Source of the DNA: Bacteroidales bacterium
GTDB lineage: Bacteria > Bacteroidota > Bacteroidia > Bacteroidales > JAIPAH01
Direction of reading: 5' to 3'
DNA length: 48,987 nt
NCBI GenBank assembly: GCA_021738485.1
Contig: JAIPBX010000012.1
Span: 1-48,987 of the forward strand
Shown: positions 1-43,279 of the stretch, in pieces
Position numbering within the stretch: the first letter of the stretch is position 1
Layout: every line of letters begins with the position of its first letter
The notes under the pieces: model-generated
Database searches by the model: none
Told to the model about the DNA's origin: nothing
Seen by the model: the letters and a program-made list of their open reading frames with translations, nothing else
Program-made: the position numbers and the translations under genes

Positions 1-439
1 GATATCTGTTTTAAATCCCAATATCCAAGCACCAAATCCCAAACAAATTCCAATTTTCAAACCCCAAACATCTAATATCCTTTTCTTCGTTTGTGTATTG
101 GATTTTGGTGCTTTTTTGAAATTTGGGAATTGTTTTTTGGGTTTTCTCCCGATTGTTGAGCTTGAGCGCCACACAATAACTCAGCGACCAAACAGGGCGT
201 CACAGACGCCAAGATGCTCCGCAAGCGAAGCATTCGCGCACGAGCTATGGATTTAAACCCCAAATCTCAAGAACCAAATCCCAAACAAATTCCAATTTTC
301 AAATCTCAAGCATCTTCTCTTTTCTTTGTTTGAAATTTGGTTTTTGGTGCTTTTTTGAAATTTGGGAATTGAAATTTGAAATTTTGTCCAATCACTAATC
401 AACCAATTACCATTCAACCATTCAACCAATTAACCAACG
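1..439. repeat. Gene-free repeat region: direct repeat pair around short hairpins
   Basis: No convincing gene lies here. Two AT-rich copies of one sequence, about 31-132 and 273-371, share a 31-nt exact match at the left (31-61 and 273-303) and a 30-nt exact match at the right (103-132 and 342-371). Within each copy the left part is roughly the reverse complement of the right part, so each copy is itself an imperfect palindrome. The segment between them (about 150-245) is richer in GC and holds two perfect hairpins: GGCGTC-aca-GACGCC at 196-210, and ATGCT/AGCAT arms at 214-218 and 229-233. A short run of CAACCATT-like repeats follows at 400-435. The sequence of copies is seen directly; calling the core a REP-like element is inference. 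Confidence 0.75.
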
Positions 440-1351
440 CTACCCCCCAAGCAACAGGTTCCAGAAATTGTTTTTTTCTAATGGATTTTTGACCACAAGT
501 ACCGGTACGGGGCTTTTGTACTTTCTCACCTCTTCGGCCACAAAGCCTAACAGGGTGGCATGGGAGGAGGTTTTTCCCTGTGCCCCGACTACTACTAGAT
601 TTGCTTCCGTGGCATTGGCCTTTTCCATAAGACGCACGGCTTGCTTGTTATAATCGGTCACTTCCACGTGTCGGGTAATTTTGGCGGGCTTGCGGGCATG
701 CTTTTTCAGGAACCGCTCCATTCGCCGCTTCCCTTTTTTCTCTACATACCGGGCAATCGATTGTCGCGGCGTGAGGGGAAAATAGATTTTGGGCATCTTA
801 AATAAAAGATGACAACCCATGTACGATTTGGTATAATCAGCAATCTGCGAGGCCAGTTTAAAGGCTTTGGCCGATACCGGCGAAAAATCCAAAGCCGTTA
901 GGATATGATCGATTTTATGATGTGGTGAAAGAGGCACCAGCAGCATATCGCTTTCGCCGTAAGCCATAATCCTCCCCGAATACAACTCTTTTCGATCCAT
1001 ATCAGCCTTTTTTCCCAGGGTAGTAACATCCACATCATTTTTCCGGATATAATCAATTATCACCTGGGAAGCATCCCGGTTTTCTTTAACCACTTCCGTT
1101 TCAATGTGGGTCTTGCTCAGATCATAGGGCTGGGTATGTTCTTTAACCTTCCATTCAACATATTCCTTAAGTTCGCGGCGAATCTGTCCCGAACGTTTTT
1201 GCTGCTCCGGTATATCGTAAGTCTGAATCACGTGGATAAATGTCAGCTTTTCGGCTTCCACAATATCAGCCAAAAAAGCGGCATAACGGATAATCCAAAT
1301 ATCCATTCCCGACAAATCCAAACAAGCAAGTATGTGTTTATAGTATTTCAT
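440..1351 (-). CDS. Universal stress protein, two tandem UspA domains
   Basis: The 303-residue length and internal layout fit two UspA domains in tandem. The first starts with a HILACLDLS-type strand at residues 6-14 and ends near the LLVPLS segment around 136-141; the second starts at HILTALDFS and ends with VPVLVVKNP near 283. The second domain keeps the glycine pattern GAQG followed nine residues later by G, but F stands where the ATP-binding motif has S or T, so nucleotide binding is uncertain. UspA proteins are cytoplasmic stress factors that often ride with transporters. Its start lies 35 bp downstream of the BCCT transporter stop on the same strand, so co-transcription with that osmolyte carrier is likely; a supporting role under osmotic stress is inference. 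Confidence 0.9.
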   Translation of the reverse strand: MKYYKHILACLDLSGMDIWIIRYAAFLADIVEAEKLTFIHVIQTYDIPEQQKRSGQIRRELKEYVEWKVKEHTQPYDLSKTHIETEVVKENRDASQVIIDYIRKNDVDVTTLGKKADMDRKELYSGRIMAYGESDMLLVPLSPHHKIDHILTALDFSPVSAKAFKLASQIADYTKSYMGCHLLFKMPKIYFPLTPRQSIARYVEKKGKRRMERFLKKHARKPAKITRHVEVTDYNKQAVRLMEKANATEANLVVVGAQGKTSSHATLLGFVAEEVRKYKSPVPVLVVKNPLEKNNFWNLLLGG

Positions 1352-1386: not shown

Positions 1387-3006
1387 CTATTCCTTGTCTT
1401 TATCCTTACTTTTTTTCCCTATCGCCTCCTCCAGGAGGTCGCGATAAGATTCTTTCTCTTTTTCTTTTCGCAACTGCAACATCTGGTAATGCTCCATACG
1501 CATCCCTTTCAGCAGGCTCCGGCTCATCAACACAAGTATCAGGGCAAAAGGAAGGCCGGTTGTTATAGCAGCTGTTTGTAAAGCTTTCAGGCCTCCGCCC
1601 AGCAGCAAAACCGCCGCTACCCCGCCAACGGCAAATGCCCAGAATACACGCTGATAGACCGGCGTTTGTGTTTTACCTCCCGAGGTAAACATATCAACTA
1701 CCAAAGAACCCGAATCCGAAGAAGTTACAAAAAAACTGACAATTAACAAAATGGCTACAATATGTGTCACATAAGCCAACGGGAAATTATCCAGCAATGA
1801 AAAAAGGGATAGGGCCACATCTTTTTCGATGATATCAGCTACCGATCCTACGCCGTGAAGCTCCATAAATACAGCCGATCCGCCAAAAGCTGAAAGCCAC
1901 AGGAACGTAAGTAATGTAGGGACGATAAGGACACCAAGGACAAATTCGCGAACAGTTCGTCCTATAGAAATCCTGGCTATAAACATCCCTACAAAGGGCG
2001 ACCAGGAAATCCACCAGGCCCAGTAAAAAATCGTCCAATCATTTTGCCATGAGGAGCCCTGGTAACTCTCAGCCCAAAAACTCTTATAAAAGAAGCTTTC
2101 GATATAAGCTCCAAAGTTCTGGCCATACGAATCCAGGATAAATACTGTGGGCCCGAACACAATGACAAAAACAAGCAGTACCGCTCCCAGGTTGATATTC
2201 AGTTCACTGAGACGCTTCACTCCCGAATCCAGGCCCGATATTACCGAACCCGTGGCTATCAGCGTAATAATAAGTATCAGTACTACCTGTACTTCAGGAC
2301 TAATGGTAATATCAAACAGGTAATTCAAACCACTATTCACCTGTTTTACTCCAAAGCCGAGAGAAGTAGCCAAACCAAAAACAGTGGCAATTGTTGCCAG
2401 TATATCGATGCCATTCCCTAAGGGTCCGTGAATACGTTCTCCAAAAATCGGATAAAATACCGAACGAATGGCTAGAGGCATCTTACGGTTAAAAGCGAAA
2501 AAAGCCAATGCCATTCCGACCAGGGCGTAAATTCCCCAGGCATGCAGCCCCCAATGCAAAAAAGAAAAATTCATGGCCTCCTCCGAGGCGGCCACCGATT
2601 TTGGGTCACTCATAGGAGGCTGCAGGAAATGAAAAACAGGCTCGGCCACACTCCAAAAAAGGATCCCGATGCCCATACCGGCACTGAAAAGCATAGCAAA
2701 CCACGCCGACCGCTTAAACTCAGGAACAGCCTCCTGCCCGCCAAGACGTATTTCTCCGTATTTACTAAACGCAAGATAAATCATGAAAAAGAGGAAAAAA
2801 TTCACTACCAGGATAAACAGCCATCCGGCATTATTAGAGATAGTATCCTGAACAGTGAGAAACACCTCTTCCATGGGCTCACCTACAATCAGGGTTATGG
2901 CTATAAAGGCGACAATAATAATCGACGAAGGGATAAAAACCGCGGGATGGACATCCACAAATCGTTTAAAATTGTTCTTACTCTTCTTACTTTCGTAATT
3001 TTCCAT
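1387..3006 (-). CDS. BCCT-family betaine/choline/carnitine-type transporter
   Basis: A 539-residue membrane protein of the expected BCCT size with about twelve hydrophobic segments. The family signature rich in Trp (WAWWISWSPFVGMFIARIS, about residues 330-348) is present, as is GMGIGILFWSVAEP near 110-123. The GMGIG form, with glycine where choline carriers tend to have aspartate, resembles sodium-coupled betaine carriers, so a zwitterion such as glycine betaine or DMSP is a more likely substrate than choline; this reading rests on remembered family data. The C-terminal tail is short and charged, without the long osmosensory tail of BetP. Upstream on the same strand is a DMSP-lyase-like cupin; a terminator-like hairpin and an inverted repeat lie between the two. 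Confidence 0.93.
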   Translation of the reverse strand: MENYESKKSKNNFKRFVDVHPAVFIPSSIIIVAFIAITLIVGEPMEEVFLTVQDTISNNAGWLFILVVNFFLFFMIYLAFSKYGEIRLGGQEAVPEFKRSAWFAMLFSAGMGIGILFWSVAEPVFHFLQPPMSDPKSVAASEEAMNFSFLHWGLHAWGIYALVGMALAFFAFNRKMPLAIRSVFYPIFGERIHGPLGNGIDILATIATVFGLATSLGFGVKQVNSGLNYLFDITISPEVQVVLILIITLIATGSVISGLDSGVKRLSELNINLGAVLLVFVIVFGPTVFILDSYGQNFGAYIESFFYKSFWAESYQGSSWQNDWTIFYWAWWISWSPFVGMFIARISIGRTVREFVLGVLIVPTLLTFLWLSAFGGSAVFMELHGVGSVADIIEKDVALSLFSLLDNFPLAYVTHIVAILLIVSFFVTSSDSGSLVVDMFTSGGKTQTPVYQRVFWAFAVGGVAAVLLLGGGLKALQTAAITTGLPFALILVLMSRSLLKGMRMEHYQMLQLRKEKEKESYRDLLEEAIGKKSKDKDKE

Positions 3007-3072
3007 CGTTAAAAATCATAAATGGCCTTTTACACAATTAATAAACCCATCACGCGGATGATCATCAAAATG

Positions 3073-3089
3073 CACATTATTACAATGTG
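3073..3089. promoter_or_regulatory. Inverted repeat upstream of the BCCT gene
   Basis: CACATT-ATTAC-AATGTG is a perfect 6-bp inverted repeat with a 5-nt centre, about 67 bp upstream of the BCCT start. It could be a regulator site controlling the transporter. No regulator gene lies nearby, so the assignment is open. Confidence 0.35.
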
Positions 3090-3120
3090 AATTCTACCTT
3101 CGAAGGAAATAAAAATTTTT

Positions 3121-3151
3121 GAAAATAAAAAGGGAAATGCCCATCATTCCC
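3121..3151 (-). terminator. Terminator-like hairpin after the cupin gene
   Basis: On the minus strand a GGGAATG...CATTTCCC stem with one bulged base begins a few bases after the cupin stop codon and is followed by TTTTTATTTT. This has the form of an intrinsic terminator. It suggests that the cupin and the BCCT transporter are either separate transcription units or coupled by partial read-through. Confidence 0.55.
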
Positions 3152-3156
3152 TGTTT

Positions 3157-3786
3157 TTAGACAAAACGCATTCCGTTTACGGCAAGCATTTGTTTGTTAC
3201 CCAGCCAGCTATAAAGCAATAAGCAAGGCTTTTCACCGGTTTTCAAGTCATGAGCCTCTGAGGTGCCTATCAAACTTGTTTCCGATTCATTAACAGTTTT
3301 ACCATTTATGGTGGCTTCGCCGCTCAAACAGATGTATAGCTCCTGAATATCATCATGCAAATGTTTCGGATAATGAGTATGAGGTCCAAGAACCAGTATG
3401 CCTATTAACATGTTTTCATTAAATACATGTCCTTTATGCCCCATCAGATTACAAAATGCAAAATTGTCGGATAAATCCGACGGTAAATTTTTATAGTCTT
3501 GTTCCCATCGTAAAAGATCGGATACTTGATTCAAGACATTAATAAGCGGAGTAAAATCGCTGGAAAAATTTATAAAAGAAGATAAAGGATAATTGTGGTT
3601 TACTTTTTTCATCTGAGGCTGCCTGGATTGAATCTTAAAGTCACCCCGCAAATATTCAATATTCTTCAAAATTTGAGCTACATGTTTTGCAACGGGTGAA
3701 TCCTGGTTTTGTTCCGACAAAAAAATTGTTTCAACTTCTCTAAGCAGTTCGTGCCAGTTAATTACATCAATTTGTGTATTCTGCAT
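3157..3786 (-). CDS. Cupin protein resembling DMSP lyases (DddQ/DddK/DddW type)
   Basis: A 209-residue protein with an alpha-helical N-terminal half (1-110) and a C-terminal cupin barrel. The cupin motif runs from G134 to G156: Y139, H142, H144, E149 and Y151, with a further metal-ligand candidate H179. A His-x-His pair, a Glu-x-Tyr pair and a distal His about 35-37 residues later are the pattern of cupin DMSP lyases, where the metal and a tyrosine remove a proton from DMSP to give dimethylsulfide and acrylate. Length and a C-terminal barrel behind a helical N-terminus also fit DddQ/DddL. There is no signal peptide. The downstream co-directional neighbour is a betaine-type transporter that could bring in DMSP. 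An uncharacterised cupin of the same superfamily is the main alternative; the family call is firmer than the activity. Confidence 0.6.
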   Translation of the reverse strand: MQNTQIDVINWHELLREVETIFLSEQNQDSPVAKHVAQILKNIEYLRGDFKIQSRQPQMKKVNHNYPLSSFINFSSDFTPLINVLNQVSDLLRWEQDYKNLPSDLSDNFAFCNLMGHKGHVFNENMLIGILVLGPHTHYPKHLHDDIQELYICLSGEATINGKTVNESETSLIGTSEAHDLKTGEKPCLLLYSWLGNKQMLAVNGMRFV

Positions 3787-3811
3787 GATATTTTGGCTAT
3801 TATAATTGCTG

Positions 3812-3819
3812 CAAATATA
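3812..3819 (-). promoter_or_regulatory. Bacteroidota -7 element upstream of the cupin
   Basis: TATATTTG on the minus strand matches the TAnnTTTG -7 consensus and sits 26 bp upstream of the cupin start. No convincing -33 TTTG was seen at the usual spacing. It probably drives the cupin and perhaps, by read-through, the transporter and stress protein. Confidence 0.5.
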
Positions 3820-3981: not shown

Positions 3982-6900
3982 ATGTTTATAATATTTGACA
4001 CGGAGACTACCGGTTTACCCAAAGATTATAATGCACCCCTGAGTGACGGTCAAAACTGGCCGCGACTGGTGCAACTGGCATGGCAGATCCATGATGAAAA
4101 AGGCGATCTTGTAGAGGCGCGGGATTATATAGTAAAACCCGAAGGCTTTACCATTCCTTACAGTGCCACAAAAGTACACGGCATCACCGATGAAAAAGCT
4201 GCCGAAGAAGGCGTGGAATTATCGTGGCTACTACAAACCTTTAATACAGCCCTCCACAAAGCCTCGTTCATTGTAGGGCACAACATCGAATTCGACCGTA
4301 ATATCGCCGGTGCCGAATATTACCGCACCTCGATTGATTCTCCTCTTCTGAAAATGGATCAGATAGATACGATGGATTCTTCTATCCGTTTTTGTGCATT
4401 ACCCGGCGGAAAAGGAGGCGGTTACAAACGGCCCAACCTTACCGAACTTCACGTAAAGCTTTTTGACGAACGTTTTGATGAAGCTCATAACGCTACGGCC
4501 GATGTGGAGGCAACGGCGCGTTGTTTCCTTGAACTGGTAAGGCGCGCAGTCATCACCCCCGATCAACTGCATTTCACTCCCGAACAAGTTCGCCGTTTTC
4601 AAGAGAACAACCCGGATATTATCCAGCCGGCAGGTGTTTCAATAAGTCCTCAAACCCAATCGGAACCTTCCCCAGCCCTGGAAGAAACCGAGCAAAAAAC
4701 TACCGGGACTGATATGGCACAGGTAGCCGACACCCCATTTAGTCACCTTCATGTGCACACGCAGTACTCCATTCTTGACGGAGCCGCTAAAATCAAAAAA
4801 CTCTTGCGTAAAGCCGGTGAGGATCATATGAAAGGACTGGCTATTACCGACCACGGGAATATGTTTGGCGTCAAGGATTTCCATGCCTCTGCATTAAGTT
4901 TCAACAAAGATGTAAAAAATGCCAAAGAAGCTGATATCGATGCCATACAGGCTGCTATCGGAGATCTCAAAATCGCTTTGTCTAACGCTAATGGTGAGAA
5001 AAAGCGAAAAGATTTACAAGAGGAAATAAAACAAAAAGAGAACGAAAAAGAGGAAACATATGCCCTGCGGAAATGTGAACCTGTTAAACCCGTGATTGGT
5101 TGTGAGGTTTATGTGGCCCGTGGTTCCAGGTTTGATAAAAAGGATGGAAAAGACAAGGGCTATCATCTTGTTCTGCTGGCTAAAAACCACAAGGGTTACC
5201 AAAATCTCATGAAGCTGGTTAGTTTGGGATTCCTCGAAGGGTTTTATTACAATCCCCGGATTGATAAAGACCTGCTAAAAGAACACAAAGAAGGGCTTAT
5301 CGCTTTATCGGGATGCCTGGGAGGAGAAGTGGCCCAAACCATCATGCATCAAAATGAAGATGCCGCGAGCGATGTTATTCGCGAATACCGGTCAATTTAT
5401 GGCGAGGACTTTTACCTGGAGATGATGCGTCATCCCAACAATGAGGAAAAAACCAGGGAAGTGTACAATGATCAACTCTATGTAAATGGCGTGTTGCAAA
5501 AGTTGAGTAAAGAAACCGGGGCAAAACTGGTGGCTACCAACGACGCTCATTTCATCGACGAAAAAGACGCTCCTGCCCACGACCGGCTGATTTGCATCAG
5601 TACCGGTAAAGATGTCGACGATCCGAACCGCATGCAATACACCCGACAGGAATGGTTCAAAACCCAGAATGAAATCAGGGAATTGTTTGCGGATGTTCCG
5701 GAAGCCCTCAAAAACACCAATGAAGTTATTGATAAAGTAGAAGTTTATGAGCTGGACCGCGATCCTATCATGCCTGAATTTGGCCTTCCCGATGAATTTT
5801 CAGATTATAACGAATACCTGCGCCATGTAACATTTGAGGGAGCAAAAGAACGCTGGGGAGAGATTAGCAGCGAGATCACAGATCGGCTGGACTTTGAGCT
5901 GGAAACCATAAGAAATATGGGCTTTCCCAGTTACTTTCTGATTGTGTGGGACTTGCTTAAAGCCGCACGTGAGCTGGATGTTTCCGTAGGTCCCGGGCGG
6001 GGCTCCGCTGCCGGTTCGGCAGTGGCCTATGCGCTTCGAATCACGGAAATCGATCCTATCAAGTATGATTTGTTGTTTGAGCGTTTTCTTAACCCCGACC
6101 GTATCTCTATGCCCGATATTGATATCGATTTTGATGACGATGGCAGGGCAAAAATTCTGGAATGGGTAGTGAACAAATACGGGGAAAAAAGAGTCGCCCA
6201 CATTATTACTTTCGGGTCTATGGCGGCTAAATCGGCCATACGCGATGTGGCTCGTGTCCAGAGCCTGCCCTTACCCGATGCGGACTACCTGGCGAAACTA
6301 GTGCCTGAAAAGCCCGGCATGAAGCTGGATAAGGCTATTCATGATACCCCGGAGCTTAAAAAGGAATTGGAGCATGGAAAACCGGAAATACAGTCGGTGC
6401 TACAGTATGCAAAAACTCTAGAAGGTTCAGTGCGAAATAAAGGCACCCATGCTTGTGGAATTATTATAGGTCGCGAGGATTTGGAGAATTATGTGCCCAT
6501 TACTACAACCAAAGACTCTGAGCTTACCTATGTTACACAATATGACGGGAATTTCGTGGAAGACATCGGCTTGCTTAAGATGGATTTCCTTGGGCTCAAA
6601 ACCCTTTCGATTATCAAAGATGCCGTGAAAAACATTGAATTATCGCGGGGAGAGACGGTGGATATAGCCAATGTCAGGCTGGATGACGAAGCGACCTATG
6701 AATTATACAGCCGGGGTGAAACCACAGGACTTTTCCAGTTTGAATCCGACGGCATGAAAAAATATCTCAAAGAACTAAAGCCCAGCCGTTTTGAAGACCT
6801 GATTGCCATGAATGCGCTGTATCGGCCGGGGCCTATGGAGTACATCCCCGACTTCATTAAACGGAAGCATGGCGAAGAGAAAATCAGCTATGACCTTCCT

Positions 6901-8412
6901 GAAATGGAAGAATACCTGGAAGAGACCTATGGCATTACCGTATACCAGGAGCAGGTAATGCGCCTTGCCCGTAAATTAGCCGGTTTCAGCCGCGGCCAGT
7001 CCGACACCCTGCGCAAGGCTATGGGTAAAAAGAAGAAAAAGCTGATGGCCGAGCTGAAAGTTAAGTTTTTTGAAGGATGCAAAGCCAATGGTTTCCCCGA
7101 GAAAAAAGTCGAAAAAATATGGAACGACTGGGAAGCCTTCGCGGAATACGCCTTTAACAAGTCGCATGCTACCTGCTATTCGCATATTTCTTACCAGACC
7201 GCTTATCTCAAAGCACATTATCCCGCGGAATTTATGGCAGCGGTATTAAGCCGTCATATGGATTCTATTGAAAAAGTCACTTTCTTTATTGAAGAGTGCC
7301 GCCGCATGGGTATTAAAGTGTTGGGACCGGATGTAAATGAAAGTTACTCCCGGTTCACCGTTAACCAAAACGGCGAAATACGCTTTGGGATGGTAGCCGT
7401 AAAAGGCGTGGGCGAAGGAGCCGTGGAAGAATTAATAAGAGAAAGGGATAATCACGGCGTTTTTCAGGATATCCTGGACCTGGTAAAACGGGTCAATCTG
7501 AAAAGCGTCAACCGTAAAACGCTGGAAGCTTTAGCCCTGGCCGGAGGGCTGGATAGCCTCGGAGATGCCCACAGGGCCCAGTATTTCTACAAAGAAAATG
7601 AATCCAATGGCATTTTCCTGGAAAAGATCATCAAGTATGGACAACAGTACCAGCAAAACCAAAACTCTTCGCAAACCTCCCTTTTCGGAGACACACAGGA
7701 CCAGGCTTTACCCAGCATCACATTTCCCAAAACGGAACCCTGGGGGCAGCTTGAGCAACTTAAGAAAGAACGGGAAGTTATTGGTTTTTACCTTTCAGGG
7801 CATCCTCTTGATGATTATAGCATAGAGCGAGAGACTTTATGCAATGCTACACTGAAAATCCTGGAGGGAGATCGTTCAAAACTTGTCGGCAGGGAATATG
7901 TCGTAGCAGGAATCGTTTCCAAACCCTCGCCCCCGAACCTCCAAACGCGGCAGGGAAAACCTTTCGGAAAATTCACCCTTGAAGACTACGAGGGTTCCGC
8001 GGATTTCTTTGCTTTTGATGAAATATTCAGCAATCACAGGGCCTCTTTAGAATCAGAAGGCACGCCCCTTCTTGTGCGTTTCAGTGTAGAAAAAAGAAAA
8101 AGCCGTAACAACAACGATGCCTCCGAGTATTCACCCTCGATTAAGAGTATTCAATTCCTCGGTGATGTACTTAACAATGTAAACAAAAAGGTGGCCATTG
8201 ATGTCAAACTGGAGGATGTGACTCCATCTTTTGTGGAAGAGATTTCTGCATTAGTGGATAAGTACCCTGGAAGGCACGATATTATTTTCAACATAATCAA
8301 GGATGATGAAAATATCTCTCTTCAGCTTCCTTCGCTGACTAAAAAGATAGATTTTTCAACGTTTATAAAAGAGTTGAATAATATCGAGAGCTTAACATAT
8401 CATTTAGTCTAA
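3982..8412 (+). CDS. dnaE: DNA polymerase III alpha subunit with fused proofreading exonuclease
   Basis: This 1476-residue replicative polymerase is about 300 residues longer than E. coli DnaE because an N-terminal DEDDh exonuclease is fused to it. The exonuclease motifs are FDTETTG at residues 5-11, GHNIEFD near 99-105 and HNATADVEA near 172-180. After a linker the PHP domain begins at HLHVHTQYS (255-263). The palm carries PDIDIDFD with D714 and D716 as catalytic aspartates, and the third is D868 in KMDFLGLKTL. A clamp-binding motif QTSLF lies at 1231-1235, followed by an OB-fold region and a C-terminal tail. The protein can therefore both polymerise and proofread, and should dock on the beta clamp encoded at 11732-12862. 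trxA follows in the same direction. Confidence 0.97.
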   Translation: MFIIFDTETTGLPKDYNAPLSDGQNWPRLVQLAWQIHDEKGDLVEARDYIVKPEGFTIPYSATKVHGITDEKAAEEGVELSWLLQTFNTALHKASFIVGHNIEFDRNIAGAEYYRTSIDSPLLKMDQIDTMDSSIRFCALPGGKGGGYKRPNLTELHVKLFDERFDEAHNATADVEATARCFLELVRRAVITPDQLHFTPEQVRRFQENNPDIIQPAGVSISPQTQSEPSPALEETEQKTTGTDMAQVADTPFSHLHVHTQYSILDGAAKIKKLLRKAGEDHMKGLAITDHGNMFGVKDFHASALSFNKDVKNAKEADIDAIQAAIGDLKIALSNANGEKKRKDLQEEIKQKENEKEETYALRKCEPVKPVIGCEVYVARGSRFDKKDGKDKGYHLVLLAKNHKGYQNLMKLVSLGFLEGFYYNPRIDKDLLKEHKEGLIALSGCLGGEVAQTIMHQNEDAASDVIREYRSIYGEDFYLEMMRHPNNEEKTREVYNDQLYVNGVLQKLSKETGAKLVATNDAHFIDEKDAPAHDRLICISTGKDVDDPNRMQYTRQEWFKTQNEIRELFADVPEALKNTNEVIDKVEVYELDRDPIMPEFGLPDEFSDYNEYLRHVTFEGAKERWGEISSEITDRLDFELETIRNMGFPSYFLIVWDLLKAARELDVSVGPGRGSAAGSAVAYALRITEIDPIKYDLLFERFLNPDRISMPDIDIDFDDDGRAKILEWVVNKYGEKRVAHIITFGSMAAKSAIRDVARVQSLPLPDADYLAKLVPEKPGMKLDKAIHDTPELKKELEHGKPEIQSVLQYAKTLEGSVRNKGTHACGIIIGREDLENYVPITTTKDSELTYVTQYDGNFVEDIGLLKMDFLGLKTLSIIKDAVKNIELSRGETVDIANVRLDDEATYELYSRGETTGLFQFESDGMKKYLKELKPSRFEDLIAMNALYRPGPMEYIPDFIKRKHGEEKISYDLPEMEEYLEETYGITVYQEQVMRLARKLAGFSRGQSDTLRKAMGKKKKKLMAELKVKFFEGCKANGFPEKKVEKIWNDWEAFAEYAFNKSHATCYSHISYQTAYLKAHYPAEFMAAVLSRHMDSIEKVTFFIEECRRMGIKVLGPDVNESYSRFTVNQNGEIRFGMVAVKGVGEGAVEELIRERDNHGVFQDILDLVKRVNLKSVNRKTLEALALAGGLDSLGDAHRAQYFYKENESNGIFLEKIIKYGQQYQQNQNSSQTSLFGDTQDQALPSITFPKTEPWGQLEQLKKEREVIGFYLSGHPLDDYSIERETLCNATLKILEGDRSKLVGREYVVAGIVSKPSPPNLQTRQGKPFGKFTLEDYEGSADFFAFDEIFSNHRASLESEGTPLLVRFSVEKRKSRNNNDASEYSPSIKSIQFLGDVLNNVNKKVAIDVKLEDVTPSFVEEISALVDKYPGRHDIIFNIIKDDENISLQLPSLTKKIDFSTFIKELNNIESLTYHLV

Positions 8413-27949: not shown

Positions 27950-29992
27950 ATGAAAAGTAAGGAAAAATTAACCATAAGGTCGGTTGATAAAAAAACACTC
28001 GAAAAGTGGTATCGCATTCTGACGCTGGGCCGTCAAATGGATGATAAAGCACCTAATTATTTGAAACAAGCCCTTGGGTGGTCTTATCATGCACCCTACG
28101 CGGGACATGACGGGATACAGTTTGCTATCGGGCAGGTTTTTGATAAGGAGCATGATCATTTATTTCCCTATTACAGGGATATGCTCACCACCTTTTCCGC
28201 CGGACTGACAGTGGAAGAAATTTTATTAAATGGGCTGTCCAAAAAAGATGATGTAGCCAGTGGTGGGCGACACATGTCAAACCATTTTGCCAAACCGGAA
28301 TGGAACATCCATAATGTGTCCTCTGCAACGGGGAACCACATACAACAAGCCGTTGGTGTGGGCAGGGCCATAAAATACTATGGCGGCAAAGGCGTAGCTA
28401 TATCCTCACAGGGCGAATCTTCGGTATCCGAAGGATTTGTGTATGAAGCCATAAATGGAGCTTCCAACGAAAAACTTCCGGTTATTTTTGTTTTCCAGGA
28501 TAATGGGTACGGCATATCGGTTCCGAAAGCAGACCAAACAGCGACACCTTATGTGGCTGATAATTTTGCCGGTTTCCGTAATCTTAAAATCTTTTATTGC
28601 AATGGGAAAGATGTCTTCAGTTCCATGAATACCATGCAGAATGCCAAGAAATGGGTACAGGAAAATCAAATGCCGGCTATCGTTCATGCCAATTGTGTAC
28701 GCATTCACTCCCACTCCAATTCCGATCGCCACGAACTTTACCGCGACGATGAGGAACGTGAAAGAGCCCTCAGGCAAGACCCGGTAGCTATTTTCAAACA
28801 GCGGCTCCTCTATTCAAAGGTCTTTGAGCAGGAAGAACTGGACAACATCGATAAAGAAGCCAAGAAAGAAATCTCCAAAAACCACAAAAAGGTTATAAAG
28901 GCTGCCGATCCGGACCCGGAAACGATTTTTGATTACGTGATTCCCGAACCTTACAAAGCGGAAAAATACCCAACGGGGACCCACAATCACGACGGCGAGA
29001 AGAAAAAATATATTACAGCACTCAACGAGACGCTCAAGAGCGAGTTCCGCAATAATCCCGACACTTTTTTGTGGGGGCAGGATGTAGCTAACAAAGACAA
29101 AGGCGGTATCTTCAACGTTACCAAAGGGATGCAGCAAGAGTTCGGCAAATCGCGTATTTTCAATGCCCCGATTGCCGAAGATTATATTGTCGGCACGGCC
29201 AATGGTATGAGCCGCTACGATAATAAAATCCGTATCGTCGTGGAAGGTGCTGAGTTTGCCGACTACTTCTGGCCGGCCATGGAACAATATGTGGAGGCTA
29301 CGCACGATTACTGGCGCTCCAACGGAAAATTTGCCCCCAATGTAACCATCCGGCTCGCATCCGGCGGCTATATCGGTGGCGGATTGTACCACTCGCAAAC
29401 CACCGAAGCTGCTCTGGGGACTTTCCCCGGTATCAGGGTTGTTTATCCTTCGTTTGCGGATGATGCCGCCGGATTACTGCGCAGCAGCATTCGATCGGAA
29501 GGACCGACCTTATTCCTGGAGCCCAAAGCTCTATATAACGACCCGAAAGCAGCTACAGCTATTCCTGATGATTATGAGGTTCCTTTCGGAAAAGCAAGGG
29601 TGAGACGTGAAGGTAGCGACTTAACGATCATTACTTACGGCAATGTTACCCATCATAGCCTTGAAGCAGCGGCAAAAATAGAGGAAGAAACTAACGCCTC
29701 CATCGAGGTGATTGACCTGCGGTCTCTTATACCGCTGGATAAGGAGACGATCCTTGAATCCATTAAGAAAACCAATAAAGTGTTGGTAGCCCATGAAGGT
29801 CCTGTATTCAACGGTTTCGGGGCTGAGCTCTCATCACTTATCACCGAAGAGGCATTTGAATACCTCGACGGGCCGATTAAGCGCGTAGGAGCTACTTTCA
29901 CACCGGTAGGATTTCATAAAAACCTTGAGAATGCTATCCTGCCCAATACCAACAAGGTTTACGCCAGACTGAAGGAAATATTGGAATATTAG
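27950..29992 (+). CDS. 2-oxo acid dehydrogenase E1, fused alpha and beta subunits
   Basis: A 680-residue single chain joins an E1 alpha-like half (about 1-340) to an E1 beta-like half (about 350-680). The thiamine-diphosphate/magnesium site is visible as G155-E-S ... D184-N185-G-Y, a variant of the GDG...NN motif. In the beta half, IAEDYIVG has the cofactor-activating Glu, and H481 in LYHSQTTEA is the conserved active-site His. It decarboxylates pyruvate or a branched-chain 2-oxo acid and passes the acyl group to a lipoyl E2; the exact substrate cannot be told, and no E2 or E3 is in the window. A perfect bidirectional terminator follows. A divergent paralogue lies at 31135-33048. Confidence 0.92.
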   Translation: MKSKEKLTIRSVDKKTLEKWYRILTLGRQMDDKAPNYLKQALGWSYHAPYAGHDGIQFAIGQVFDKEHDHLFPYYRDMLTTFSAGLTVEEILLNGLSKKDDVASGGRHMSNHFAKPEWNIHNVSSATGNHIQQAVGVGRAIKYYGGKGVAISSQGESSVSEGFVYEAINGASNEKLPVIFVFQDNGYGISVPKADQTATPYVADNFAGFRNLKIFYCNGKDVFSSMNTMQNAKKWVQENQMPAIVHANCVRIHSHSNSDRHELYRDDEERERALRQDPVAIFKQRLLYSKVFEQEELDNIDKEAKKEISKNHKKVIKAADPDPETIFDYVIPEPYKAEKYPTGTHNHDGEKKKYITALNETLKSEFRNNPDTFLWGQDVANKDKGGIFNVTKGMQQEFGKSRIFNAPIAEDYIVGTANGMSRYDNKIRIVVEGAEFADYFWPAMEQYVEATHDYWRSNGKFAPNVTIRLASGGYIGGGLYHSQTTEAALGTFPGIRVVYPSFADDAAGLLRSSIRSEGPTLFLEPKALYNDPKAATAIPDDYEVPFGKARVRREGSDLTIITYGNVTHHSLEAAAKIEEETNASIEVIDLRSLIPLDKETILESIKKTNKVLVAHEGPVFNGFGAELSSLITEEAFEYLDGPIKRVGATFTPVGFHKNLENAILPNTNKVYARLKEILEY

Positions 29993-30915: not shown

Positions 30916-30993
30916 AGCTTGATAGTTTTTAGTTTGTATAAAGATAAAAGAAAAATACATAAAAACCTAGCAATCAGTTAAATTATGTATAAG

Positions 30994-31033
30994 GTGCGGG
31001 TTTTATTGTATGAGTTGCGGGTTTTATTGTATG
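30994..31033 (+). repeat. Two 19-bp direct repeats between divergent genes
   Basis: TGCGGGTTTTATTGTATGA occurs twice, at 30994-31012 and 31015-31033, exactly 21 bp apart, which is two helical turns. The pair lies in the 219-bp gap between the SUMF1-like gene and the E1 paralogue, upstream of a possible promoter. It has the form of a tandem regulator site. Confidence 0.5.
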
Positions 31034-31071
31034 AATGGATAGAAAAAAGATTATCAACTTTCCGAATTTTT

Positions 31072-31105
31072 CTTTGCCTGCCAAACGCTTATTTTTTTAC
31101 TTTAG
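31072..31105 (+). promoter_or_regulatory. Possible promoter of the divergent E1 paralogue
   Basis: TTTG at 31072-31075 and TACTTTAG at 31098-31105 resemble a Bacteroidota -33/-7 pair with a 22-bp spacer; the last base pair of the -7 box deviates from consensus. It places transcription start just upstream of the ATG at 31135 and argues against the earlier in-frame ATG at 30985. Confidence 0.4.
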
Positions 31106-31134
31106 AAAAACAAAAAAACGAATCTTTTATACTT

Positions 31135-33048
31135 ATGGTCTACATTTCTGATATTAAAGGATATAGCATCCGCTCGTTGCGGAAATGGATGGAAAGCCTT
31201 ACCTACAATACTTTGTTACAGCAGGAGATAGAGAATCACTTTAAGGAACACGAGATTGAGCCGATCTTTGATATCAATCAACACATGAATTTCGCCGACC
31301 TTGCCATGGGTGCATTTTACAAACCCGAACAGGATTTTTGTTACCTCTATCCCGGCAACCTGTTGGGAGGGCTTTCCTGCGGCTTATCGGTTATGGATAT
31401 CCTGATGACCATTCACAACAAAAAAGACCTGAATCATCATTATAACCGCATCTCTCCCACTCATTTTTATAACCTGGAAAAGCGCATAAAACCGGTCTCG
31501 GGCATTAAGAGCAATCAGACGGCAATAGCCGTAGGGCTGGCTCGCAGCCTGAAGATATATCATACCCGTGGTATTGTTATCTGCCCTGTGCATCCCGACG
31601 AAATCATTGAAGGAACGCTTTTCGAATCGATGCATGCTGCCAATGAGGAGCGGCTACCTTTGTTGTTTATCGTATCCGGTTATGCCGGAGAATCTGCAGC
31701 TTTCAATCCGGATATTTTTCAACGCCTGACCAATATTTATTTCAGCTATTGCGACGGTAGCAGCTTTTTTGACACTATGAACGCTATGAATAAATCCTGG
31801 CAGATTACCCGCGACGGTACAGGACCTGTTATGATGATTGGCCGAAACAGGCTTACTTCACGGCAAGCCTATGATACTTTAGCCGGAGAGTTATATCATT
31901 CACAAAAGCTTACCAAGGAAGAAATTAACAAAATGTGGGAGGACGCCCGTATACAAATCCGCCAGGAAAAAGAAAAAGTGATAGCTTTAGAATCCCCGGA
32001 TGCAGGAGACATAACGATGACGCAAACGAAGGTATTTAAAGCCCGGGAACAAGAAGCTAACGAAGAGACGCCACGATATACTATTCGTCAGGCCATTGAA
32101 AGCACGATAATCAAAGAATTACAACAAAACATCCATGGATTTTACGTAGCCAGAAAATATACCGCTGAAGCAAACCCGTTTCCCAGCAGGCTCAGGTCTT
32201 ATATTGCCGAGCACAGGGTTATCACGCTTAATGCCGGTGAGCAACTGCTGACCGCTTCCGCGGGAGGCATGTGCGAATACAATGAAAATATGAGTGTCGT
32301 GGTGGAACCGTGTGCCCATGCCGATGACTACTGGAGCTCGCTGGCCCAGGTTGTTGATTTAACCTTCTCGATGCTTATGCTGCAGCAGAATATTTCATTA
32401 GTTATTCGCATTCCCTCGGGAGGATATACCGGCAGCGGACCCTATGCTTCCCAAAATCTGGAGGGTCCGTTGCTTTCAGTGCCGGGGTTAAGAATTGCCT
32501 ATCCGGCTTATGCTAATGATTATGCCGGTTTACTCCGTTCAGCTATGCGTTCGCCCGGAATAACCATATTGCTTGAAAGCAAGGCTATATATGATGACGA
32601 TATCGCCACTGCCCGCGTGCATTCTGAAAACAGTGTTCCTTTCGGGGAAGGAAAGATTGTCAGGGAAGGAAAGGACCTGACCATTTTTAGCTACGGCAAT
32701 GCACTGCACCTGGCCGTATTGGCCGCGGAAAGGCTTGCCCGCGAAGAGGAGTATGAAGTGGAGGTTTTTGATCTGCGATCGCTACTCCCTATGGATAAAA
32801 CAGGTATCTTAAAAAGTGCCAGGAAAACCGGAAAAGCACTCATCGTCACTGAAAGTTACCTCTTTGGTAATGTAGGGGCAGAAATCAGCTCTCTATTAAA
32901 CCAGGAAGCTTTTTTTTCGCTGGAAGCGCCGGTCAAAAGACTGGGAAGCCTCTTTATACCTGTCCCCTATCAAACCAACCTCGAAAGCACCGTCTTACCC
33001 GGTGTTACCGATATAAAAGAAGCAGCCAGGGATATACTTTATATGTAA
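31135..33048 (+). CDS. Divergent fused E1 alpha/beta paralogue, probable pseudoenzyme
   Basis: The open frame begins at 30985, but the ATG at 31135 aligns with the start of the intact paralogue at 27950 and gives 637 residues; the earlier 50 residues look like translated leader. The alpha half is divergent: where the active protein has G-E-S and D-N-G-Y, this one has H-P-D (about 153-155) and S181-G-Y-A-G-E-S187 in an ungapped alignment, so the thiamine-diphosphate/magnesium ligands are gone. In the beta half the active-site His of the HSQ motif is A438, although the AGE segment with a Glu and the DLRSLLPMDK region are retained. The frame is long and uninterrupted, so it is selected for something. 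A regulatory or structural partner of E1, or a changed reaction, are the options. Confidence 0.85.
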   Translation: MVYISDIKGYSIRSLRKWMESLTYNTLLQQEIENHFKEHEIEPIFDINQHMNFADLAMGAFYKPEQDFCYLYPGNLLGGLSCGLSVMDILMTIHNKKDLNHHYNRISPTHFYNLEKRIKPVSGIKSNQTAIAVGLARSLKIYHTRGIVICPVHPDEIIEGTLFESMHAANEERLPLLFIVSGYAGESAAFNPDIFQRLTNIYFSYCDGSSFFDTMNAMNKSWQITRDGTGPVMMIGRNRLTSRQAYDTLAGELYHSQKLTKEEINKMWEDARIQIRQEKEKVIALESPDAGDITMTQTKVFKAREQEANEETPRYTIRQAIESTIIKELQQNIHGFYVARKYTAEANPFPSRLRSYIAEHRVITLNAGEQLLTASAGGMCEYNENMSVVVEPCAHADDYWSSLAQVVDLTFSMLMLQQNISLVIRIPSGGYTGSGPYASQNLEGPLLSVPGLRIAYPAYANDYAGLLRSAMRSPGITILLESKAIYDDDIATARVHSENSVPFGEGKIVREGKDLTIFSYGNALHLAVLAAERLAREEEYEVEVFDLRSLLPMDKTGILKSARKTGKALIVTESYLFGNVGAEISSLLNQEAFFSLEAPVKRLGSLFIPVPYQTNLESTVLPGVTDIKEAARDILYM

Positions 33049-41192: not shown

Positions 41193-42854
41193 CTATTTAG
41201 CCATGAACATTTCCACGTCTTCTTTAGGCTCACCGATGCCGGAGATACCGAATTTATCCACCAGTACGTTGGCTACGTTTGGTGAAAGGAAAGCCGGCAA
41301 GGTGGGTCCCAGGTGAATATCCTTCACGCCAAGTGACAGCAGGGCCAGTAATACGATAACCGCCTTCTGCTCGTACCAGGCGATGTTGTATTCAATCGGT
41401 AAATCGTTGATATCATTGAGTTCGAAAACTTCCTTGAGCTTCATAGCGATAACGGCTAAGGAATACGAGTCGTTGCACTGTCCGGCATCCAATACTCGCG
41501 GAATGCCACCGATGTCACCTAAGCCCAGCTTGTTGTAACGGTATTTGGCACAGCCGGCGGTCAATATCACCGTATCATCAGGAAGTTCCTGAGCAAAATC
41601 GGTGTAATACTGCCTTGATTTCATGCGGCCGTCACAGCCAGCCATGACAAAGAACTTGCGGATAGCGCCGCTTTTCACAGCATCCACCACCTTGTCAGCC
41701 AGTTGCATGACCTGGTTATGAGCAAAACCACCGACGATTTCTCCGGTTTCTATCTCCTTCGGGGGATCACATTTTTTGGCATGCTCGATAATCTGCGAGA
41801 AATCTTTCATGCCATCATTTTCCCTTGCCGGAATATGTGTTGCTCCATCCAACCCGGAAGCTCCGGTTGTATATATCCTATCTTTGTAGCCGGCGTTTTT
41901 CCTTGGCGGAACGATGCAATTGGTTGTGAAAAGGATAGGTCCGTTAAATGATTCGAACTCTTCTTTTTGTTTCCACCACGAGTTACCGTAATTTCCTACA
42001 AAATGATCATACTTTTTGAAAGCGGGGTAATAATTGGCCGGGAGCATCTCGCTATGGGTGTATACATCCACGCCACTTCCTTCCGTTTGCTGAAGCAAAT
42101 CCTCCATGTCTCTGAGATCATGGCCGCTGATCAGTATCGCCGGGTTATTGCGTACCCCAAGATTCACCGACGTCATTTCAGGATTCCCATAGCGGCTTGT
42201 ATTGGCCTGGTCAAGCAATGCCATTACCTCCACACCATATTTACCTGTTTCCAATGTGAGGGATACCAAATCATCCACTGATAGTGAATCATCCAAAGTG
42301 CCGGCCAAAGCCCGCTCCATGAAAGCATAGATTTCATCTTTTTTATGACCGAGATTATAGGCATGTTCTGCATAAGCTGCTATTCCTTTTACGCCGTATG
42401 TAACGAGTTCACGAAGCGATCGTACATCTTCATTTTCAGTTTGGAGGACCCCTACATTTTCGGCCTTCATATCAAGCGCTCCATCGGTTTCACCGGTCCA
42501 CGTGCACGCATCTTTCAACTCTTCATCATTAAAAGATATTCCATTCTTCTCCAGCTGCTTTCTTAACCGGTCTCTCACCTCAAAACCGCGATAAACTCTT
42601 TGACGAATGGCTTCTTTATCGAAGTTGGCATTGGTGATAGTGGAGAAAAGCCCGTCCATAACAAAATGGTTCACTTCATCATCCACTGTCATATTGTTTT
42701 TTCGTATTTCATAAGCGAAAAAAGTGGTGCCTTTGATAACATGCATCAAAAGGTCCATCATGTTAGCGGTGTCATCCGTTTTTCCACAAACACCTTTGCT
42801 TGTGCATCCTGCATTTTTTAATGCCTCCTGGCATTGGAAACAAAACATACTCAT
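41193..42854 (-). CDS. hcp: Hybrid cluster protein (hydroxylamine/NO reductase)
   Basis: A 553-residue Hcp. The N-terminal cysteines C5-x2-C8-x8-C17-x5-C23 have the spacing of class I proteins that hold a [4Fe-4S] cluster, as in strict anaerobes, unlike the wider spacing of the E. coli [2Fe-2S] form. Hybrid-cluster ligands are seen in the C-terminal half, for example [18 protein letters not shown] and the EIGNYG/NWHH-like blocks. It reduces NO or hydroxylamine and protects against nitrosative stress. Its ATG overlaps the stop of the Rrf2 regulator gene by 4 bp, so the two are co-translated. Confidence 0.96.
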
Positions 42855-43279
42855 AAATCTTCTCTTTTTAATGTAATTTTAGTTTTTAAATCTTGTATTG
42901 TTGTATTTTCGAGATAATCCTTAACCTCATCTTTTACGCGTTCACCTAAATCGCCGTAGATGCATGGCTCAAAAATGCAATCCTCTGAGCACATATCACA
43001 CATGCGGCCGCTTATCGCACCTTCGATAAACTGATAAATCTCCAGTAAGTTTATATCCTCCGGAGCTTTACCCAGAATGAATCCACCTCCCGGCCCGCGA
43101 GTACTTCTTAAATAGCCACCTTTTACCAGCATCTGCAAAACTTTGGCCGAATGGTTTTTAGAGAAATTAAAACCTTCCACGATCTCAGTCACATTCATTT
43201 TTTTATCAGTGCTGGCAATAATAACCACACTGTGTATGGCAATAGATGCGGCTTCTGATATGTTAACAATTCGACTCAC
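42851..43279 (-). CDS. Rrf2-family regulator, probable iron-sulfur NO/redox sensor
   Basis: A 142-residue winged-helix protein. The DNA-binding part spans about 1-70 ([28 protein letters not shown]). Four cysteines follow: C94, C97, C101 and C106. Rrf2 proteins such as NsrR and IscR bind an iron-sulfur cluster with such residues, so sensing of NO or redox state is likely. It is the first gene of an operon with hcp, the classical NsrR target, and an inverted repeat overlaps its promoter, which fits autorepression. Confidence 0.92.

What the first reader, a model, noticed from the sequence alone, without database searches (positions are those of the whole stretch)
1387..3786. DMSP-lyase-like cupin upstream of a betaine-type BCCT carrier in a Bacteroidota-like chromosome
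The 209-residue cupin shows H142, H144, E149, Y151 and H179 in the spacing of cupin DMSP lyases, and the next gene encodes a BCCT carrier with the betaine-type GMGIG motif. Together they could take up and cleave DMSP to dimethylsulfide and acrylate. Known DMSP lyases are mainly from Proteobacteria and some algae, and I do not recall a characterised one from this phylum. A terminator-like hairpin separates the two genes, and no acrylate-use genes are nearby, so the system, if real, is small or split.
Basis: partly seen in the sequence, partly recalled or inferred. Interest (0 to 1): 0.65.

Follow-up and report, generated by a model that had tools for sequence, protein, structure and literature searches.

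The report
DddL-type DMSP lyase in Bacteroidales
An uncultured bacterium of the order Bacteroidales carries what looks like a real DddL enzyme, the kind that splits the marine sulfur compound DMSP into the climate-active gas dimethylsulfide, next to a second osmolyte importer; none of the papers read describes such an enzyme in this phylum, so it is worth a simple bench test.

Summary
The 209-residue cupin (3157-3786, -) matches Pfam DMSP_lyase at 1.4e-23 (83.9 bits, cut-off 27) and no other cupin family significantly. Its closest relative found is not DddQ or DddK but a DddL in an acuR-acuI-dddL operon of a Rhodobacteraceae plasmid: 29% identity over nearly the whole length, grouped with it at 96/96 support. 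The two share a one-residue-longer metal motif (Y..H.H....E.Y) that nine other family members lack. All six DddQ active-site residues are aligned. A second MAG of the same GTDB genus holds the same locus (86% identity); no other of about 390 genomes each of the order and class does. So this is probably a horizontally acquired DddL, fixed in one Bacteroidales lineage. The neighbouring BCCT carrier and universal-stress protein are a second, diverged copy of a BCCT-Usp pair that relatives keep without the cupin; its substrate cannot be read from sequence. The cupin has its own terminator and conserved promoter-like element. No AcuI or CoA-transferase III was found in either (78-79% complete) genome, so acrylate disposal is unexplained. 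Most likely: DMSP (or DMSOP) cleavage after BCCT uptake. Enzyme activity is untested; the structure model failed.

The parts
3157..3786 (-). DddL-type cupin (209 aa); predicted metal-dependent DMSP/DMSOP lyase; active-site set Y139, H142, H144, E149, Y151, H179, plus W194
   Evidence: Pfam PF16867 1.4e-23; DddQ 3.3e-7 by single sequence and 1.7e-11 by profile; DddL of Rhodobacteraceae SC52 29% over nearly the whole length, 2e-31 in the pairwise comparison; tree 96/96
3334..3372 (-). metal/active-site motif 1, YPKHLHDDIQELY (residues 139-151), HxHx4ExY spacing shared with DddL
3133..3151 (-). terminator-like hairpin with T-rich tail after the cupin gene
   Evidence: 3 terminator-like sites in the region, 0.5 expected; not more stable than shuffles
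3797..3819 (-). TATATTTGCAGCAATTATAATAG upstream of the cupin start, identical in both MAGs; holds TAnnTTTG, the Bacteroidota -7 promoter consensus (consensus from memory)
   Evidence: exact match only in the loci of the window genome and the Tobar MAG
1387..3006 (-). BCCT carrier (539 aa), betaine/TmaT-type; diverged second copy in this genome
   Evidence: PF02028 4.4e-194; TmaT 8zw8 600 bits; 61% to the other copy on contig C64, which is 73-81% to copies in relatives
440..1351 (-). tandem universal stress protein, 35 bases after the BCCT gene; BCCT-Usp is a recurring pair
   Evidence: PF00582; pairs in L045, L041, L042

Best explanation
The cupin is a DddL-subfamily DMSP lyase, acquired horizontally by the ancestor of one uncultured Bacteroidales genus and kept next to dnaE beside a second BCCT-Usp osmolyte-uptake pair. 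Likely mechanism: the BCCT carrier brings in DMSP (or a similar onium osmolyte) with sodium. In the cytosol the divalent metal held by H142/H144, E149 and H179 positions the substrate. A tyrosine (Y151, or Y139) takes the alpha proton, and beta-elimination gives dimethylsulfide and acrylate; DMSOP would give DMSO and acrylate. Shown: family, nearest subfamily, active-site residues, conserved locus. Inferred: activity, substrate, uptake route, metal, promoter and terminator function, horizontal origin. Not explained: the fate of acrylate.
For: Pfam DMSP_lyase 83.9 bits against a cut-off of 27; next cupin family E = 0.02. PDB relatives at E < 0.01 by single sequence are only DddQ, 5cu1 (DMSP lyase) and 4b29, all DMSP-lyase family. 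Best full-length relative is L034, called DddL by its depositors; here its neighbours score as AcuI (522.9 bits, cut-off 440) and AcuR (255.5, cut-off 247), the acuR-acuI-dddL order reported for R. sphaeroides (PMC13104084). Co-linear alignment at 29%, including N-terminal NW..LL.E, RQ...K.V, L.WE..Y, A.C and C-terminal PCLL.Y.W.G. Grouping 96/96; placement with three other members gave p-AU 0.014, 0.016 and 0.050. Shared one-residue insertion with DI in motif 1; nine other family members lack it. The two motif tyrosines are reported as conserved in cupin DMSP lyases but not in other cupins (PMC5395565) and are present. Locus conserved in a second MAG (86% cupin, 94% BCCT). Lower GC of the cupin (36.7%) than of dnaE, BCCT and Usp (45-46%), and absence from 391 other genomes of the order and 394 of the class, fit a gain by transfer.
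Against: Identity to the operon-supported DddL is only 29% and branches are long. No sequence of a biochemically characterised DddL could be aligned. The family also holds enzymes of unknown function (Lei 2018, title as cited in PMC8163506). No acuI in either draft genome, unlike the known dddL operon. The cupin and BCCT genes look like separate transcription units. The AlphaFold model had pLDDT 35 and is useless.
Confidence: 0.68

Rival explanations
1. A DddL-like cupin whose main substrate is another beta-substituted propionate or onium compound; DMSP cleavage is absent or only a side activity.
For: The family is known to hold enzymes of unknown function; some Rhizobiaceae plasmid members annotated as lyases lie beside flavin oxidoreductases and electron-transfer flavoproteins rather than DMSP genes. 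No AcuI in the two genomes. 29% identity leaves room for a change of substrate.
Against: Its kin is the DddL branch, not the Rhizobium branch, and every named active-site residue is kept.
Confidence: 0.22
2. The BCCT-Usp pair is an ordinary betaine or trimethylamine importer with no functional tie to the cupin; the cupin merely lies beside it. (This concerns the carrier only and is compatible with the cupin being a lyase.)
For: BCCT-Usp pairs occur without the cupin in relatives and on contig C64 of the same genome; closest solved structure is TmaT, which binds trimethylamine and not betaine (PMC11708041); terminator-like hairpin between the genes.
Against: This copy is a diverged one (61% to the other copy; Usp 27%) found only in the genus that has the cupin, and the three genes stay together in both MAGs. 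Both MAGs are one genus, so shared order is weak evidence.
Confidence: 0.45
3. Assembly or binning artefact: a proteobacterial gene placed on a Bacteroidales contig.
For: Both genomes are MAGs, 78-79% complete.
Against: The gene lies between dnaE and BCCT in two separate MAGs with 86% identity, has low GC unlike the alphaproteobacterial members, and has an identical upstream element in both.
Confidence: 0.02

Closest known systems
DddL (cupin DMSP lyase of Rhodobacteraceae; acuR-acuI-dddL operon)
   Same: Co-linear alignment over nearly the whole length, HxHx4ExY spacing with DI, two motif tyrosines, motif-2 His, C-terminal PCLL.Y.W.G
   Different: 29% identity, Bacteroidales host, no acuR or acuI alongside, beside a BCCT-Usp pair, lacks the N-terminal extension of about 15 residues seen in the plasmid DddL
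DddQ, DddW (and PDB 5cu1 DMSP lyase)
   Same: Pfam DMSP_lyase family, same metal and tyrosine residues
   Different: HxHx3ExY spacing; similarity limited to about residues 77-199
TmaT (trimethylamine carrier, Myroides) and NCBIfam betaine_BCCT
   Same: 600 and 594 bits; same Met and six aromatic-box residues as TmaT
   Different: Below the betaine_BCCT equivalog cut-off (593.9 against 650); substrate unknown
DddT (DMSP-type BCCT)
   Same: BCCT family
   Different: Only 260 bits, far less alike than TmaT or BetT

Membership tests
DddL DMSP lyase | Match to Pfam DMSP_lyase above its cut-off | tested here: met
   83.9 bits, cut-off 27
DddL DMSP lyase | Metal ligands and catalytic tyrosines (DddQ Y120, H123, H125, E129, Y131, H163 equivalents) | tested here: met
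   Y139, H142, H144, E149, Y151, H179 aligned
DddL DMSP lyase | Groups with DddL rather than other cupin DMSP-lyase-like proteins | tested here: met
   96/96 with the one operon-supported DddL; alternatives p-AU 0.014, 0.016, 0.050. Only one DddL was available
DddL DMSP lyase | Genetic link with acuR and acuI (usual context, not a property of the enzyme) | tested here: not met
   None nearby; no AcuI above cut-off in either genome
DddL DMSP lyase | Metal-dependent release of dimethylsulfide from DMSP | not testable with these tools
   Needs purified protein
DddL DMSP lyase | Fold superposes on DddQ | tested here: inconclusive
   Model from 2 sequences had pLDDT 35, not searched
DddQ / DddW | HxHx3ExY spacing | tested here: not met
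   Window has HxHx4ExY (DddQ and DddW residue numbers from PMC4437653)
BCCT betaine-type carrier | BCCT family match, GMGIG and aromatic box | tested here: met
BCCT betaine-type carrier | NCBIfam betaine_BCCT equivalog cut-off | tested here: not met
   593.9 against 650
DddT DMSP carrier | Closest to DddT among solved BCCTs | tested here: not met
   260 bits against 600 for TmaT

The most novel reading that the evidence does not exclude
An uncultured Bacteroidales lineage, probably of saline anoxic water, cleaves DMSP with a transferred DddL that has become part of an osmolyte-turnover module (dedicated BCCT, stress protein, own Bacteroidota promoter) without the acrylate-detoxifying genes that accompany dddL elsewhere. 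[quoted passage not shown]
Probability: 0.3. Interest if true: 0.65.

Novelty: new member of a known kind. Interest (0 to 1): 0.52.

Why it matters
[quoted passage not shown] A confirmed DddL there would widen the set of organisms counted in dimethylsulfide budgets. The divergent sequence and the HxHx4ExY signature give a way to find more of them.

Tried and rejected
AlphaFold model from the window and Tobar sequences: pLDDT 35, discarded, so no fold search was made. Viral-contig scans with the three-sequence alignment and with the plasmid DddL: no relatives; phage records: none. Other Pfam DMSP_lyase matches in 395 Bacteroidota genomes: only the window is matched over most of the profile; the other five over the cut-off score 28-39 bits and match only the C-terminal cupin part, and 27 of the 29 other loci examined lack the two-tyrosine motif; rejected as DddL. 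AcuI-like hits score 79-85 bits against a cut-off of 297 and were rejected. FMN_bind hits (open frames of 181-271 aa) look too short for an acrylate reductase and may be Rnf or Nqr subunits; not tested further. Contamination considered and rejected on synteny in a second MAG. The Wang 2023 DddU paper is not in the library. A promising literature hit for DMSP lyase with Bacteroidales (PMC5394123) in fact reports no lyase genes.

Full report
What is there. On the minus strand the window holds, in order of transcription, a 209-residue cupin (3786-3157), a 539-residue BCCT carrier (3006-1387) and a 303-residue tandem universal-stress protein (1351-440); dnaE (3982-8412) starts on the opposite strand. 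The cupin scores 83.9 bits (1.4e-23) against Pfam DMSP_lyase, three times the cut-off; the next cupin family is at E = 0.02. Against solved structures its only hits below E = 0.01 by single sequence are DMSP-lyase family entries, first DddQ at 3e-7, or 2e-11 with a three-sequence profile.

Which lyase. The best full-length relative found is a protein of a Rhodobacteraceae plasmid annotated DddL (29% over 97% of the query, 1e-22). I checked that annotation by its neighbours: they score above the NCBIfam equivalog cut-offs for AcuI (522.9 against 440) and AcuR (255.5 against 247), which is the acuR-acuI-dddL operon reported for Rhodobacter sphaeroides (PMC13104084). The alignment runs from the N-terminal NW..LL.E to the C-terminal PCLL.Y.W.G. 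In a tree of 12 family members the window, its Tobar homologue and this DddL form one group with 96/96 support; forcing the window with the Gemmobacter, Sinorhizobium or Sulfitobacter members gives p-AU 0.014, 0.016 and 0.050. Branches are long, and only one DddL could be fetched.

Active site. In DddQ the active-site residues are Tyr120, His123, His125, Glu129, Tyr131 and His163 (PMC4437653). Profile and pairwise alignments put Y139, H142, H144, E149, Y151 and H179 of the window on them. The two motif tyrosines are said to be conserved in cupin DMSP lyases but not in other cupins (PMC5395565). The motif is Y..H.H....E.Y, one residue longer than in DddQ and DddW and than in all nine other plasmid family members examined, but the same as in the plasmid DddL.

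Where it occurs. The window's genome is a MAG, 78% complete. Its GTDB family has one other genome. A locus of the same identity (86%) is on a contig of the MAG 'Bacteroidales bacterium isolate Tobar18m-G1', which has the same dnaE-cupin-BCCT-Usp order; I take the two to be the same genome. No other of 391 genomes of the order matches the protein, and no other of 394 in the class matches the alignment. In the 395-genome phylum sample the remaining Pfam hits are short-range cupin matches. The cupin's GC is 36.7% against 45-46% for its neighbours. I infer horizontal gain before the two species split; the donor is unknown. The sample name suggests Lake El Tobar, a meromictic lake (PMC9477826); that link is inference, and its saline deep water is from memory.

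Transcription. A hairpin with a T-rich tail follows the cupin gene at 3133-3151, though the region folds no better than shuffled sequence. Upstream, TATATTTGCAGCAATTATAATAG is identical in both species and holds the TAnnTTTG box of Bacteroidota promoters (from memory). The cupin is probably its own unit.

The carrier. The BCCT is nearest to TmaT among solved structures (600 bits), then BetT-type carriers (415), BetP (328) and DddT (260). All TmaT substrate residues (PMC11708041) are kept, but so they are in every BCCT of the order examined, so they do not identify the substrate. It falls below the betaine equivalog cut-off. The genome has a second BCCT-Usp pair on contig C64 whose carrier is 73-81% identical to those of three relatives; the window pair is 61% (BCCT) and 27% (Usp) to it and was found only in this genus. 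A tree puts the window carrier beside this order-level group (SH-aLRT 91) on a long branch. A second, diverged uptake pair beside a lyase is suggestive of DMSP uptake but does not prove it.

Acrylate. AcuI is not found above cut-off in either genome, nor CoA-transferase III, the family of DddD. With 78-79% completeness, absence is weak evidence. How acrylate is handled remains open.

Verdict. A real and probably functional DddL-type enzyme in Bacteroidales: a new member of a known family in an unexpected phylum, with an unusual gene neighbourhood. The lyase activity, the DMSP uptake and the acrylate route are all untested.

Noticed in passing
window 10-139 and 252-378: Two copies (85-86% identical over 64 and 60 nt, spaced about 240) of an AT-rich intergenic repeat downstream of the Usp gene.
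   Followed up: partly
L032 7781-8004: The Tobar MAG carries a palindromic repeat (GTCTAAAAAGCCTTAAG...CTTAAGGCTTTTTAGAC around CCCCTTCAGGGGATTTAGGGG) in the cupin-BCCT gap; the window has no match to its core anywhere.
   Followed up: partly
window 30985-33048 and 27950-29992: Two fused E1 alpha-beta type 2-oxoacid dehydrogenase-like genes; the one at 30985 scores only for Transketolase_C, so it looks like a degenerate second copy.
   Followed up: partly
window 41193-43279: Hybrid-cluster (prismane) protein with an adjoining Rrf2 regulator, a typical nitrosative-stress pair.
   Followed up: no
L017 and L020 (other Bacteroidota): Two low-scoring Pfam DMSP_lyase loci contain the two-tyrosine cupin motif (YPNHVHPAGEEIY, YAYHNHAISEMY); L017 has the DddL-like spacing but an open frame of only 118 aa.
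   Followed up: no
L050, L052, L053 (Rhizobiaceae plasmids): Family members annotated as DMSP lyase lie directly after an NADH:flavin oxidoreductase gene, in two cases with electron-transfer flavoprotein genes following; their substrate may well not be DMSP.
   Followed up: no
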